DNA of 64,000 nucleotides from Halobaculum roseum (GTDB lineage Archaea; Halobacteriota; Halobacteria; Halobacteriales; Haloferacaceae): contig NZ_CP082286.1 in the NCBI RefSeq assembly GCF_019880245.1, forward strand, positions 434,001 through 498,000, read 5' to 3'. The notes beneath the pieces are model-generated. The model saw only the letters and a list, made by a program, of their open reading frames with translations, was not told the DNA's origin and made no database searches. A program made the translations under genes and the position numbers. Below, in pieces: positions 45,617-49,476 of the stretch. Numbering within the stretch: the stretch's first letter is position 1; each line of letters begins with the position of its first letter.

Positions 45617-46762
45617 ATGCGAACTGTCGACGCCGCCGGCCTCCCGATCGGCGACGATCACCCGCCGCGGATCATGGGCGTGTTGAACGTCTCGAAGGAG
45701 TCCCCCTACGACCCCAGCGTGTACGACGACGCCGGCGAGGCCGCCCGCTACGTCGACGAGGAGCTGATCGACGAGGGCGCCGACATCGTCGACGTGGGTC
45801 TCGAATCCGCGAACAAGCGGTTCGAGGTGCTGTCGGCCGAGGAGGAGCTGGAGCGACTCGACACCGCGATCGAGACGATCGAGAGCGTCTCCGGCGACGC
45901 CGTCTTCTCCATCGAGACCCGATACCACGAGGTCGCCGACGAGGCCCTCGCGCGCGGCTTCGACATGGTGAACGACATCTGCGGCTTCGGCGATCCGGAG
46001 ATGCCCCGCGTGTGCGAGGAACACGACGCCGCGGTGGCGAAGATGGCGTCGCCGCCGGACCTGGAGCGACCGGGCGCCGTCGAGGAGGTGGACGACATCT
46101 ACGAGGCGCTGTCGCTGAACGGCTTCACCGACAAGACCATCGTCGACCCGGCGTTCGGCGGCTGGTCCGAGGAGAAGACCCTGGCGGACGACCGCGAGAC
46201 GTTCCGCCGCCTCCGGGAGTTCCGCGGCTACGGTCGCCCGATCCTGGTGTCGATCAACCGGAAGAACTTCCTCCGGAGCGTCGCCGACCGCGACACCGAG
46301 GAGGCGCTGCCCGTCTCGCTGGCGGCGACCTCGATGGCCGTCGAGCGCGGCGCCCACATCGTCCGCACGCACGACGTGGCCGAGACCCGGGACGCCGCGC
46401 TCATCGGGAAGGAGTTCGCCCGCGATCGCGTCCGGACCCGGGGCGAGGTATCCGTCGAGGAGCTCGACGTGGCGACGACCGGCGACGCCCGCCGGCACGT
46501 GGACCGGTTCGGCGGCGACCCCGCAGTCGCCGACGACGCCGTGGCACGGGTGTACGAGTTCGAGGGGCTCGACTCCGAAGAGATCGGCTCGTTGCGCGCC
46601 GCTACCGCCGGTTCGTCGGCGGTTCTCGTCGCCGACGGGACGGGATCGTCGGCCCTGCTGATCGGCACCGTCGCCGAAACTGTGGCGGCCGCACAGGCCG
46701 CGAGCGGGGCTACGGAGGCGTTGGACGCCGCGCTGTCGTGCGTCGCGCGTCCGACAGAGTAA
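45617..46762 (+). CDS. folP: dihydropteroate synthase
   Basis: A 381-residue TIM-barrel enzyme joining pterin pyrophosphate and p-aminobenzoate to form dihydropteroate in folate synthesis. The MGVLNVSKESPYD motif (residues about 17-29) corresponds to the bacterial MGILNVTPDSF, and VDVGLESANKRF matches the second signature. From about residue 275 there is a C-terminal extension of about 100 residues absent from bacterial enzymes. The downstream gene, mptE, makes the pterin pyrophosphate substrate precursor, so the pair is functionally linked. Confidence 0.88.
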   Translation: MRTVDAAGLPIGDDHPPRIMGVLNVSKESPYDPSVYDDAGEAARYVDEELIDEGADIVDVGLESANKRFEVLSAEEELERLDTAIETIESVSGDAVFSIETRYHEVADEALARGFDMVNDICGFGDPEMPRVCEEHDAAVAKMASPPDLERPGAVEEVDDIYEALSLNGFTDKTIVDPAFGGWSEEKTLADDRETFRRLREFRGYGRPILVSINRKNFLRSVADRDTEEALPVSLAATSMAVERGAHIVRTHDVAETRDAALIGKEFARDRVRTRGEVSVEELDVATTGDARRHVDRFGGDPAVADDAVARVYEFEGLDSEEIGSLRAATAGSSAVLVADGTGSSALLIGTVAETVAAAQAASGATEALDAALSCVARPTE

Positions 46763-46795: not shown

Positions 46796-46882
46796 ATGGA
46801 AGCCGGAAGGGCACCGCGGGTAGGGGTACTCTGGTGCGCTTTCGGCCCGATCCCGTATTACTGCGAGCCGTCACGCCGGTAG
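46796..46882 (+). CDS. possible leaderless 28-residue micro-ORF
   Basis: A 28-codon open frame whose ATG coincides with the start site predicted from the TATA element at 46766-46774. The product would have a hydrophobic centre and two cysteines. GC at third positions is clearly lower than in neighbouring genes, which argues against a conserved protein. A regulatory leader or small RNA for mptE is an alternative. Confidence 0.3.
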   Translation: MEAGRAPRVGVLWCAFGPIPYYCEPSRR

Positions 46883-46890
46883 TCACCACC

Positions 46891-47565
46891 ATGGAGTTCA
46901 CCGACTGGGAGCCGATCTACGCGGCGATCCTCGCCGACTTCGGGTTCGACCGCGCCGCCGACGAGGCGGTCAGGGACCGCGCCGCAGCGTTCGCCGAGCC
47001 GTTCGACCTCGACCGGCTGGACTGTTCGGGCGCGACCGTCGCCGTCGCCGGCGCGGGGCCGTCGCTGGAGGCGGAGGCCGACCTCGCTCGCGACGCTGAT
47101 CTGGTGTTCGCGGCCTCGACCGCCACGGACCGCCTCGTCGCCGAGGGCGTCGCGGTCGACGCGATGGTGACGGACCTGGACAAGAACCCCGGGACCGGAC
47201 TCGCGCGGACCGAGCGCGGCGCCGCCGTCGTCGCCCACGCCCACGGCGACAACGGCGATCTGGTCGAGGAGTGGCTCCCCCGCTACGACGCCGCGCACAC
47301 GCTCGTCACGACGCAGGCGGCGCCGGTCGACGCCGTCGCCAACTACGGCGGCTTCACCGACGGTGATCGCGCGGCGTTCCTCGCCGACCACTGCGGCGCC
47401 GAGCGGCTCGTCTTCCCCGGCTGGGATCTCGACGACCCCGAGGTAGACGGCATGAAGGCACGCAAACTGGACTGGGCCGAACGCCTGCTCCACCTTCTGG
47501 AGCGCCGCCGCGGCGAGCGCTTCGCCGTCCTCGACGGCCGGCGCGACGGGATCGATCCGCTGTGA
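46891..47565 (+). CDS. mptE: 6-hydroxymethyl-7,8-dihydropterin pyrophosphokinase (MptE-like)
   Basis: A 224-residue DUF115 family enzyme, the archaeal pterin pyrophosphokinase that replaces FolK. The nucleotide site AGAGPSLE is near residue 54 and the metal-binding TDLDKNPG near residue 92. The ATG at 46891 starts the conserved part. A TATA-like CGTATTAC at 46854-46861 would give a nearly leaderless messenger. It acts just before dihydropteroate synthase (folP, immediately upstream) in folate synthesis. Confidence 0.88.
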   Translation: MEFTDWEPIYAAILADFGFDRAADEAVRDRAAAFAEPFDLDRLDCSGATVAVAGAGPSLEAEADLARDADLVFAASTATDRLVAEGVAVDAMVTDLDKNPGTGLARTERGAAVVAHAHGDNGDLVEEWLPRYDAAHTLVTTQAAPVDAVANYGGFTDGDRAAFLADHCGAERLVFPGWDLDDPEVDGMKARKLDWAERLLHLLERRRGERFAVLDGRRDGIDPL

Positions 47566-47624
47566 CTGTTCCACATCGCTTGTCCACCTCGGTTCCGCTC
47601 GCCCGCTAAAGGATATTTTAGCTG

Positions 47625-47634
47625 ATACTTATTC
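47625..47634 (+). promoter_or_regulatory. TATA-like element of the proteasome beta-like gene
   Basis: ATACTTATTC lies about 27 nt before the ATG at 47657 in an AT-rich stretch (47606-47635), consistent with a leaderless transcript. Confidence 0.5.
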
Positions 47635-47656: not shown

Positions 47657-48382
47657 ATGGACGACACGGACACCGGCGCGGCGTCGCTCGGGACGACCAT
47701 CGTCGGGATAGTCGCGCACGGGGACACGAACCGCGAGGGAGAGCCGACGAACGATACCGCCGATGCCGACGGCGGCGACCGCGACGAGCACGCCGGCGAC
47801 AGCGGCGACCACGGTGATCGCGGCAACGCGGTTGTACTCGCCTCTGATCGTCGCGCGAGCCTCGGGCGGATGGTATCGAGCAAGGACGCCCGGAAGGTCC
47901 ACCCCATCGGCGACGCGGCGGCGCTGGCGTTCACCGGCTCGGTCTCGGGGGCGCAGGCGCTCGTCGCCGACCTGGACGCCGAGCGCCGGCTCTACGAACT
48001 CCGCCGGGGAACCGAGATGTCGACCACGGCGCTCGCGGGCTACGCCGCCACCGCGATGCGCAAGCAGCGGTACGGCGTCCAGCACCTCCTCGGCGGCGTC
48101 GACGGCGACGGGGCCCACCTCTACACCTTCGACGGGGGCGGGTCGGTCCTCGAACAGCCCTACGCCGCCGACGGGTCCGGGGGGCAGTTCGCCTACGGGA
48201 CTCTGGAGGACGGCTACCGGGAGGGGGTCGGCGTCGCCGACGCGGAGACGCTGGCCGCGCGCGCCGTCGCCGCCGCCAGCGAGCGCGACACCGCCTCTGG
48301 AAACGGGCTCCACCTGGTGACGATCACCGATGACGGGGTCGAGGAGGCCGTCTACGACGACCCGGCGGCGGTCGCCGCCTGA
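47657..48382 (+). CDS. divergent proteasome beta-type subunit with acidic insertion
   Basis: A 241-residue Ntn hydrolase of the proteasome beta type. A 12-residue propeptide would be removed to expose Thr13 in LG-TTIVGI. Catalytic partners are present: Asp64 in ASDRRAS and Lys80 in SKDARKV (spacing D to K of 16 as in Thermoplasma), and Asp/Ser in the ERDTASG segment. Between strands S1 and S2 there is an insertion of about 35 acidic, Gly/Asp-rich residues (about 22-56). The short propeptide differs from the long one typical of haloarchaeal PsmB. It could form an alternative 20S particle or a separate HslV-like peptidase. Confidence 0.85.
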   Translation: MDDTDTGAASLGTTIVGIVAHGDTNREGEPTNDTADADGGDRDEHAGDSGDHGDRGNAVVLASDRRASLGRMVSSKDARKVHPIGDAAALAFTGSVSGAQALVADLDAERRLYELRRGTEMSTTALAGYAATAMRKQRYGVQHLLGGVDGDGAHLYTFDGGGSVLEQPYAADGSGGQFAYGTLEDGYREGVGVADAETLAARAVAAASERDTASGNGLHLVTITDDGVEEAVYDDPAAVAA

Positions 48383-49476
48383 TCGTCGGCGTCGTCTCCC
48401 TCCGGGCCGCCCTCCGTCGACCGCTCGGTCGGTCCCGTTCCCCCTCGGTCGTCGTCCGCCGCGGTCACGCGTTCGGTCTCGACCACGGTCGGCCCGTCGC
48501 CCACGAGGAGCCGGAGCGTCTCCCCGTCGCCGGCGACGGAGACGCGGACGGCCGGCGGATCGGTCGACAGCACGCCCTCGGCCCACTCCGACCCGAGGTT
48601 CCAGATCGGCCGCTCGCGCACGTCGATCCCGTGGTCGTCGCAGAAGGCGACCACCGCCGGGTGCTCCGCGAGCGCGACCGACACCGGAACCCGGACGCGG
48701 AAGTCGCAGTCGGCGCACGCGCCGGCGACGACCGGACGCGCCGGCGCGTCCTCGGTCCCGTCTCCCGCCTCGGCGGCGTCCGGAAGCTCCGCCGGTTCGA
48801 CGAACGCGATCTTCCCCTCGGCGCGGCCCGCGCAGTCAGGACAGACGCCGTCGGCGAGCTGCCGGAGGCGCGCGCGGTGGTAGGCGTCGAACGCCGGGAG
48901 CACCTCGTCGGTGTCGCGGTCGCGGACGCCGCCCGGCGGGAACGGGAGCGCGAGGAGTTCGGTCGCGCAGTCGGTGCAGGCGACGGCGACGTGGTTGTCG
49001 GCGATCCGCGCCTCCAACGCCGACGCGCCGCACACCGGGCAGTCGCCGGCGACCGGCTCGGGGTCGCGGTCCACGCGTTCGGTGTAGACGCCGGCGTCGA
49101 GCGCGCGGGCGGCCTGCCGGCCGGCGAACGTCGGCCGGTAGCGCCCGTCGTCGTCGGTTCTCACGTACCGGTCCGTCAGCTGTCGCAGGTGGTAGGCGAA
49201 CCCCGCCGACGGGCCGTCGGGGTCGTCGGCGACGCGCTCGAACAGCTCGGTGAACCCGAGGGGACGGTCGGCGGACGCGAGCGTCCGGACCGTCCGGAGG
49301 CGCGTCTCGTCGGCCAGGGCGGCGAAGGCGTCGTCGGGCGCGACAGCGGACGCCCCCGCGTCGTCGACCTCGTCGGGGCTCGCGGCGTCCGCGTCGCTCG
49401 CGGGGTCGTCCGCGTCGTTGGCGGCGACGCCCCCGTCGGCTTCGGGACCGGGCGACGCGTCGTGACCGTCGTTCAT
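48352..49476 (-). CDS. winged-helix protein with zinc-ribbon clusters
   Basis: A 374-residue protein. An acidic N-terminal tail (about 1-50) leads to an ArsR-type winged helix (FAALADETRLRTVRTL, SAGFAYHLRQLTDRYV). Then come zinc-type CxxC pairs: CPVCG, CTDC, CPDC and CADC, suggesting two ribbon domains. The C-terminal 30 residues are acidic and low-complexity. Likely a haloarchaeal transcriptional regulator (DUF7351-like); the target is unknown. Its 3' end overlaps the convergent proteasome-like gene by 31 bp. Confidence 0.85.
   Translation of the reverse strand: MNDGHDASPGPEADGGVAANDADDPASDADAASPDEVDDAGASAVAPDDAFAALADETRLRTVRTLASADRPLGFTELFERVADDPDGPSAGFAYHLRQLTDRYVRTDDDGRYRPTFAGRQAARALDAGVYTERVDRDPEPVAGDCPVCGASALEARIADNHVAVACTDCATELLALPFPPGGVRDRDTDEVLPAFDAYHRARLRQLADGVCPDCAGRAEGKIAFVEPAELPDAAEAGDGTEDAPARPVVAGACADCDFRVRVPVSVALAEHPAVVAFCDDHGIDVRERPIWNLGSEWAEGVLSTDPPAVRVSVAGDGETLRLLVGDGPTVVETERVTAADDDRGGTGPTERSTEGGPEGDDADDQAATAAGSS

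What the first reader, a model, noticed from the sequence alone, without database searches (positions are those of the whole stretch)
47657..48382. Catalytically complete proteasome beta-like subunit with a 35-residue acidic insertion
Thr13, Asp64, Lys80 and the D-x-x-S-G segment are all in place, and the Asp-Lys spacing equals that of the Thermoplasma subunit. The propeptide is only 12 residues and an acidic, Gly-rich loop is inserted between S1 and S2. It stands alone, without an alpha subunit nearby. It could define a second proteolytic particle with different gating or assembly.
Basis: partly seen in the sequence, partly recalled or inferred. Interest (0 to 1): 0.55.

Follow-up and report, generated by a model that had tools for sequence, protein, structure and literature searches.

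The report
Switchable second archaeal proteasome subunit
A salt-loving archaeon carries a spare, catalytically intact proteasome subunit that travels with its own candidate regulator gene and a matching DNA switch, which suggests that these cells turn on a specialised protein-shredding machine.

Summary
The 241-aa gene is real. It encodes a second proteasome beta subunit (PsmB2), 51% identical to the canonical PsmB that lies elsewhere in the same Halobaculum genome. All catalytic residues are kept and the core is under purifying selection. The acidic insertion is a variable, probably disordered loop found only in the five Halobaculum PsmB2 proteins, so it is not the key feature. The key feature is the setting. 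PsmB2 belongs to an old haloarchaeal accessory-proteasome module: a palindrome, CTAAA-N6-TTTAG, about 36 nt before the start codon; beta2; usually an alpha gene; and a convergent winged-helix/zinc-ribbon gene (DUF7347/DUF7351). In the whole 3.7-Mb genome the exact palindrome occurs twice, before psmB2 and before psmA2, at nearly the same spacing. A search by motif alone across 391 genomes hit 59, at most once each; 29 of the 30 sites examined sat directly before a beta gene. Six Halobaculum species lack both psmB2 and the regulator at this site. Best reading: a regulated alternative core particle, alpha2 with beta2, with a changed S1 pocket (Phe45). Binding of the regulator, induction and particle make-up are inferred.

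The parts
47657..48382 (+). psmB2, accessory proteasome beta subunit (241 aa, stop included)
47657..47692 (+). 12-residue propeptide, ending Gly12 before the presumed catalytic Thr13
   Evidence: the canonical PsmB of the same genome has a much longer one
47717..47827 (+). S1-S2 loop residues 21-57 (37 residues, net insertion 35, acidic); Halobaculum-specific, low AlphaFold2 confidence
47606..47621 (.). palindrome CTAAA-N6-TTTAG, candidate operator, 35 nt before the ATG
47622..47633 (+). AT-rich stretch just downstream of the palindrome, possible TATA element (inference)
   Evidence: inference
48352..49476 (-). convergent DUF7347 (wHTH) + DUF7351 (zinc-ribbon) gene, 374 aa, candidate regulator of psmB2
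48352..48382 (.). 31-nt tail-to-tail overlap of psmB2 and the regulator gene, the same length in 8 of 12 further genomes measured

Best explanation
PsmB2 is an active, alternative 20S proteasome beta subunit. It descends from a haloarchaeal accessory-proteasome module made of a palindromic site, beta2, an alpha gene and a convergent wHTH/zinc-ribbon regulator. In the Halobaculum lineage the module's own alpha gene is gone, and the palindrome is shared with psmA2. Under a signal not known here, the regulator acts at the palindrome next to the core promoter and switches psmB2 and psmA2 together. That makes a specialised core particle rich in alpha2 and beta2, whose S1 pocket (Phe45, non-acidic residue 35) gives different cleavage products. 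Shown: intact catalytic residues, purifying selection, separate ancestry from PsmB, gene linkage, and the restriction of the exact palindrome to psmB2 and psmA2 in this genome. Inferred: regulator binding, induction, co-assembly and altered specificity.
For: Canonical psmB, psmA1 and psmA2 are present elsewhere. The PsmB2 clade has 100/100 support apart from canonical PsmB and groups with regulator-linked operon betas. Core dN/dS is 0.025-0.215 in 10 of 10 Halobaculum pairs. The regulator hit beside psmB2 scores 326-816 bits in 13 of 14 PsmB2 genomes; in 170 family genomes the next hit is 250 bits, beside the alpha-beta operon of G085, then 186. Both genes are absent at this site in 6 of 6 Halobaculum without psmB2, where mptE abuts the photolyase gene. 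Proteasome-linked regulators (46) separate from 10 unlinked paralogues, 100/100. Among 108 beta loci, exact palindrome and regulator are both present in 40, regulator only in 6, palindrome only in 2, neither in 60; five of the six have a 1-2 mismatch version. In the whole own genome the exact palindrome occurs only before psmB2 and psmA2; allowing one mismatch adds three sites, all on contig C4. The psmA2 site has at most 1 mismatch and lies 37 nt from the first ATG in 14 of 14 PsmB2 genomes. Motif-first: 29 of 30 sites precede a beta gene. Phe45 is in 14 of 14 PsmB2 and 0 of 50 betas labelled canonical.
Against: No binding, expression or assembly data exist here. G115 keeps psmB2 and the palindrome, but only a C-terminal piece of the regulator was found. 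The psmA2 palindrome stays (at most 1 mismatch) in 4 of the 7 examined genomes without PsmB2: G001, G002, G005, G006, so it has some other use or is a relic. In Halobacteriaceae-type operons (9 of 19 motif-first loci) the convergent gene shows only a weak wHTH match of 64-82 bits, no clearer to linked than to unlinked paralogues. G188 has psmA2 and psmB2 far apart. Phe45 is also in 11 of 35 operon betas and absent in 24, so a changed pocket does not define the module.
Confidence: 0.7

Rival explanations
1. PsmB2 enters ordinary core particles beside canonical PsmB on alpha1 rings (mixed beta rings, as immuno-subunits replace constitutive ones), rather than forming an alpha2/beta2 particle.
For: 51% identity to PsmB and the same predicted fold. 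H. [quoted passage not shown]
Against: The exact palindrome is shared with psmA2 and with no other site in the genome; accessory betas of other families have their own alpha in the operon.
Confidence: 0.35
2. PsmB2 forms a fully separate homotypic alpha2/beta2 particle.
For: Shared palindrome and spacing with psmA2; psmA2 within about 20 kb in 10 of 14 PsmB2 genomes.
Against: psmA2 also occurs in Halobaculum without psmB2, so alpha2 must work with PsmB there.
Confidence: 0.3
3. The palindrome is a core-promoter element read by a general transcription factor or another regulator, and the DUF7351 gene is a neighbour with a different job.
For: It sits close upstream of an AT-rich stretch at a fixed distance from the start; the psmA2 copy survives without psmB2 and its regulator in 4 genomes.
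Against: A general element would be common, but this one occurs twice in the genome; it tracks the regulator gene across 108 loci; linked regulators form their own group.
Confidence: 0.2
4. PsmB2 is a decaying duplicate.
For: Long branch, absent from most of the family.
Against: Catalytic residues kept; core dN/dS 0.025-0.215; promoter palindrome and 31-nt overlap conserved.
Confidence: 0.04
5. PsmB2 is not a protease but a peptide ligase or other Ntn enzyme, as connectases are (recalled).
For: Proteasome relatives with such roles are known (recalled).
Against: Catalytic and Ser129/Asp166/Ser169 residues of true betas are kept; it matches the archaeal beta model best.
Confidence: 0.03

Closest known systems
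Canonical archaeal 20S beta subunit (PsmB, TIGR03634)
   Same: Fold, Thr1/Asp17/Lys33/Asp166, Gly-Thr processing site
   Different: Below the equivalog cut-off (181.8 of 224 bits); separate clade; 12-aa propeptide; Phe45; long S1-S2 loop; own palindrome and candidate regulator
Accessory alpha-beta operon of haloarchaea, described for Natrialba magadii as Nmag_0515-0514 beside separate alpha and beta genes (passages of PMC3403918)
   Same: Second beta with palindrome and convergent DUF7347/DUF7351 gene, as seen here in other Natrialba species; nearest relatives in the tree
   Different: No alpha between beta2 and the regulator; palindrome shared with the distant psmA2 instead. The passages seen mention neither palindrome nor regulator
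Growth-phase-dependent proteasome subtypes of Haloferax volcanii (alpha2 and PAN-B protein rise several-fold entering stationary phase; passages of PMC2910475)
   Same: alpha2 as the regulated alternative subunit
   Different: H. volcanii has a single beta (same passages); no psmB2
Vertebrate immunoproteasome (recalled)
   Same: Works alike in the proposed reading: a second catalytic beta with a changed S1 pocket, under its own control
   Different: No common origin implied; induction and mixed assembly not shown here

Membership tests
20S proteasome beta subunit (T1 Ntn hydrolase) | Proteasome domain and fold | tested here: met
   PF00227 128 bits; model best matches 1j2q_H, E 6.8e-18
20S proteasome beta subunit (T1 Ntn hydrolase) | Thr1, Asp17, Lys33, Ser129, Asp166, Ser169 equivalents | tested here: met
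   Ser129-equivalent is Thr in 1 of 14 clade members
20S proteasome beta subunit (T1 Ntn hydrolase) | Propeptide ending in Gly before the catalytic Thr, removed autocatalytically | tested here: inconclusive
   Gly12-Thr13 present; processing not testable
20S proteasome beta subunit (T1 Ntn hydrolase) | Assembly into a four-ring core particle | not testable with these tools
   No assembly data at hand
Canonical archaeal PsmB (NCBIfam TIGR03634 equivalog) | Score above the curated cut-off of 224 bits | tested here: not met
   181.8 bits
Canonical archaeal PsmB (NCBIfam TIGR03634 equivalog) | Groups with canonical PsmB in a tree | tested here: not met
   Separate clade 100/100
Haloarchaeal accessory beta-alpha operon with regulator | Palindrome about 36 nt before beta | tested here: met
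   Exact, 35 nt
Haloarchaeal accessory beta-alpha operon with regulator | Convergent DUF7347/DUF7351 gene | tested here: met
Haloarchaeal accessory beta-alpha operon with regulator | alpha gene directly after beta | tested here: not met
   None in the window; psmB2 and the regulator gene overlap by 31 nt
HslV | NCBIfam HslV models above cut-off | tested here: not met
   28.0 of 137 and 26.5 of 157.75 bits

The most novel reading that the evidence does not exclude
Haloarchaea carry a transcriptionally switched second proteasome: a dedicated thiol- or metal-sensing wHTH/zinc-ribbon protein reads CTAAA-N6-TTTAG and turns on a homotypic alpha2/beta2 core particle with its own cleavage preference, an archaeal counterpart of the immunoproteasome.
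Probability: 0.3. Interest if true: 0.78.

Novelty: new variant of a known kind. Interest (0 to 1): 0.6.

Why it matters
A DNA site that by itself points to accessory proteasome genes (29 of 30 sites examined), together with a linked regulator family, offers a concrete handle on when and why archaea change their proteasome. It can be tested directly in culturable haloarchaea. It also gives Pfam's DUF7347/DUF7351, for at least one subfamily, a likely role.

Tried and rejected
Rejected: the insertion as defining feature; the gene as the only beta; a displaced operon alpha as the origin of psmA2 (the two are separate in the tree and G085 has both); a conserved protein upstream of the ATG (the in-frame LKDILADTY is the palindrome and promoter read as codons). 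Tried without result: first genome-contig scan with P0001 alone; the regulator model in PDB (no match with E under 0.001), so its wHTH assignment rests on Pfam; a search for an overlap between contigs G189:C438 and C97 to account for the missing G189 palindrome (no exact overlap). Where the S1-S2 loop lies in the assembled particle was not determined: no coordinates were at hand. Connectase and Anbu were not compared by search.

Only 30 of the 59 class-wide motif genomes were examined downstream, and 20 motif sites with wider flanks (19 have a beta). The 10 unlinked regulators are a hand-picked sample of the hits. The 121-row tree is a quick one without bootstrap; L185 there has an aberrant branch, and its 'canonical' label means only that no alpha, palindrome or regulator was found beside the beta. 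In one search, 7 repeat contigs and L199 (no core match) were left out. Literature: searches seen as listings only; passages read of PMC3403918, PMC2910475, PMC7601130; DUF7351 gave 0 papers.

Full report
WHAT IS THERE. The ORF at 47657-48382 (+) encodes a 241-aa proteasome-family protein. The genome that holds the window (3.72 Mb, 4 contigs) has four PF00227 genes: two alpha, one canonical beta with a long propeptide, and this one. The window protein is 51% identical to the canonical beta over 178 residues and falls below NCBI's cut-off for archaeal PsmB, 181.8 of 224 bits. The genus is Halobaculum, inferred because same-genus genome G008 has the contig length and locus of Halobaculum litoreum. 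I call the protein PsmB2.

Thr13, Asp64, Lys80 and the ERDTASG segment are present. Over the clade, T1, D17, K33, D166 and S169 equivalents are kept in 14 of 14 and the S129 equivalent in 13 of 14, Thr in the other. AlphaFold2 gives the usual fold (mean pLDDT 85.3), best matched by the Archaeoglobus beta and by many betas at Z 28-30. The loop between S1 and S2 is modelled without structure and with low confidence.

THE INSERTION. Against the two-residue turn of its nearest relatives, PsmB2 has a net insertion of 35 residues in G000, 30 in G009, 26 in G008, 35 in G007 and 17 in G004, all Halobaculum; the nine PsmB2 proteins of other genera have none. Between G000 and G009 the loop has dN/dS 0.67 and the core 0.025. 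It is a fast-changing acidic loop; acidic loops are common in halophile proteins (established knowledge).

ANCESTRY. In 170 genomes of the family, two betas were found in 16: 14 carry PsmB2, and G085 and G187 carry an alpha-beta operon. The PsmB2 clade has 100/100 support against the canonical betas of the same genomes. In a wider quick tree it is sister to operon betas of Natrialbaceae (SH-aLRT 93) inside a set of regulator-linked betas (82). Phe45 (Ile, Met, Leu or Val in all 50 betas labelled canonical) marks 14 of 14 PsmB2 and 11 of 35 operon betas; residue 35, Glu in 35 of those 50, is never acidic in PsmB2. Positions 35 and 45 line the S1 pocket (established knowledge), so altered specificity is likely but untested.

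THE PARTNER GENE. Directly convergent with psmB2 is a 374-aa DUF7347 (wHTH) plus DUF7351 (zinc-ribbon) gene, with eight invariant cysteines among 14 aligned relatives. The two genes overlap tail to tail by 31 nt, the same length in 8 of the 12 other genomes measured; the remaining four show overlaps of 7 and 37 nt and gaps of 9 and 169 nt. Halobaculum species split cleanly: 5 of 11 have both genes, 6 have neither at this site, where mptE is followed by the photolyase gene. The best family-wide matches to the regulator (326-816 bits) are the 13 genes beside psmB2; next comes the copy beside the G085 alpha-beta operon (250 bits), then unlinked paralogues from 186 bits down. In a tree, 46 proteasome-linked copies separate from 10 unlinked ones, 100/100. 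In the fourteenth genome, G115, only a C-terminal piece was found.

THE PALINDROME. Upstream of psmB2 lies CTAAA-N6-TTTAG, 35 nt before the ATG in the window. It is exact in 12 of 14 PsmB2 genomes, with one mismatch in G028 and not seen in G189, whose contig starts just upstream. In the window, none is expected by chance. In the own genome the exact pattern occurs twice, before psmB2 and before psmA2. With one mismatch there are three more sites, all on contig C4; the reversed control pattern gives 21 sites. The psmA2 site lies 37 nt before the first ATG and has at most one mismatch in 14 of 14 PsmB2 genomes. Of 7 examined genomes without PsmB2, it is kept (at most one mismatch) in 4 and has 3-5 mismatches in 3. 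So the link to psmA2 is strong but not exclusive.

THE WIDER MODULE. Among 108 beta loci, exact palindrome and regulator occur together in 40, regulator alone in 6, palindrome alone in 2, neither in 60. Of the 6, five have a 1-2 mismatch version at the usual place (L162, L163, L177, L190; L076 = G028); the sixth is G189. In 28 of the 32 operon loci looked at the palindrome or its variant was placed before an in-frame start; most gaps are 34-40 nt. Motif first: the AT-core version occurs in 59 of 391 genomes of the class, at most once in each, while the reversed control occurs in 1. Of the 30 sites examined, 29 stand before a beta and 27 also have an alpha. Of 20 fetched with wider flanks, 19 have the beta and a convergent wHTH-type match: 10 strong (276-603 bits), 9 weak (64-82 bits, all Halobacteriaceae-type f12, subfamily unresolved).

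HOW IT MOST LIKELY WORKS. The regulator, probably as a dimer, binds the palindrome beside the core promoter and controls psmB2 and psmA2 together; the cysteine pairs could sense metal or redox state (all inference). The products join a core particle with altered S1 pockets. In H. volcanii alpha2 protein rises several-fold on entry into stationary phase (passages of PMC2910475), which fits alpha2 as the regulated partner. Whether PsmB2 makes pure or mixed rings is open.

KNOWN OR NEW. A second alpha-beta operon is on record for Natrialba magadii (passages of PMC3403918). I found no report of the palindrome, of the DUF7351 link or of Halobaculum PsmB2 in the listings, which cover open-access papers only. 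It is a new variant of a known kind.

Noticed in passing
L002 about 1367-1411 (upstream of psmA2) and relatives: A short upstream ORF of 13-17 codons (MTALATTTHVGGDR* in G000) starts 37 nt after the palindrome in most of the 21 genomes examined, and its stop overlaps the psmA2 start (ATGA): possible translational coupling or leader peptide.
   Followed up: partly
L086 4714-5220, L101, L102: A third, very divergent PF00227 protein without propeptide (starts MSTVIGIE / MSTIVGIE / MGTVVAVE) in G015 (Halobium salinum), G085 (Halogranum rubrum) and G028 (Cand. Halobonum tyrrellensis), 60-78 bits; not in the window's genome.
   Followed up: no
L089, L060, L063, L066, L068, L070, L058, L131, L122, L123: A second kind of extra alpha-beta pair, alpha first, without palindrome and without the DUF7351 gene.
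   Followed up: partly
G040: C3:424142, C3:401854, C7:204968: One genome with three beta genes, of which one (C3:401854, L057) has the palindrome and regulator.
   Followed up: no
G115, L081 5681-6232: psmB2 and palindrome kept while only a C-terminal piece of the regulator was found.
   Followed up: partly
window 45632-46762 and 46855-47565: Adjacent dihydropteroate-synthase-like (Pterin_bind) and MptE-like genes, a pterin pair that flanks the psmB2 site in several genera.
   Followed up: no
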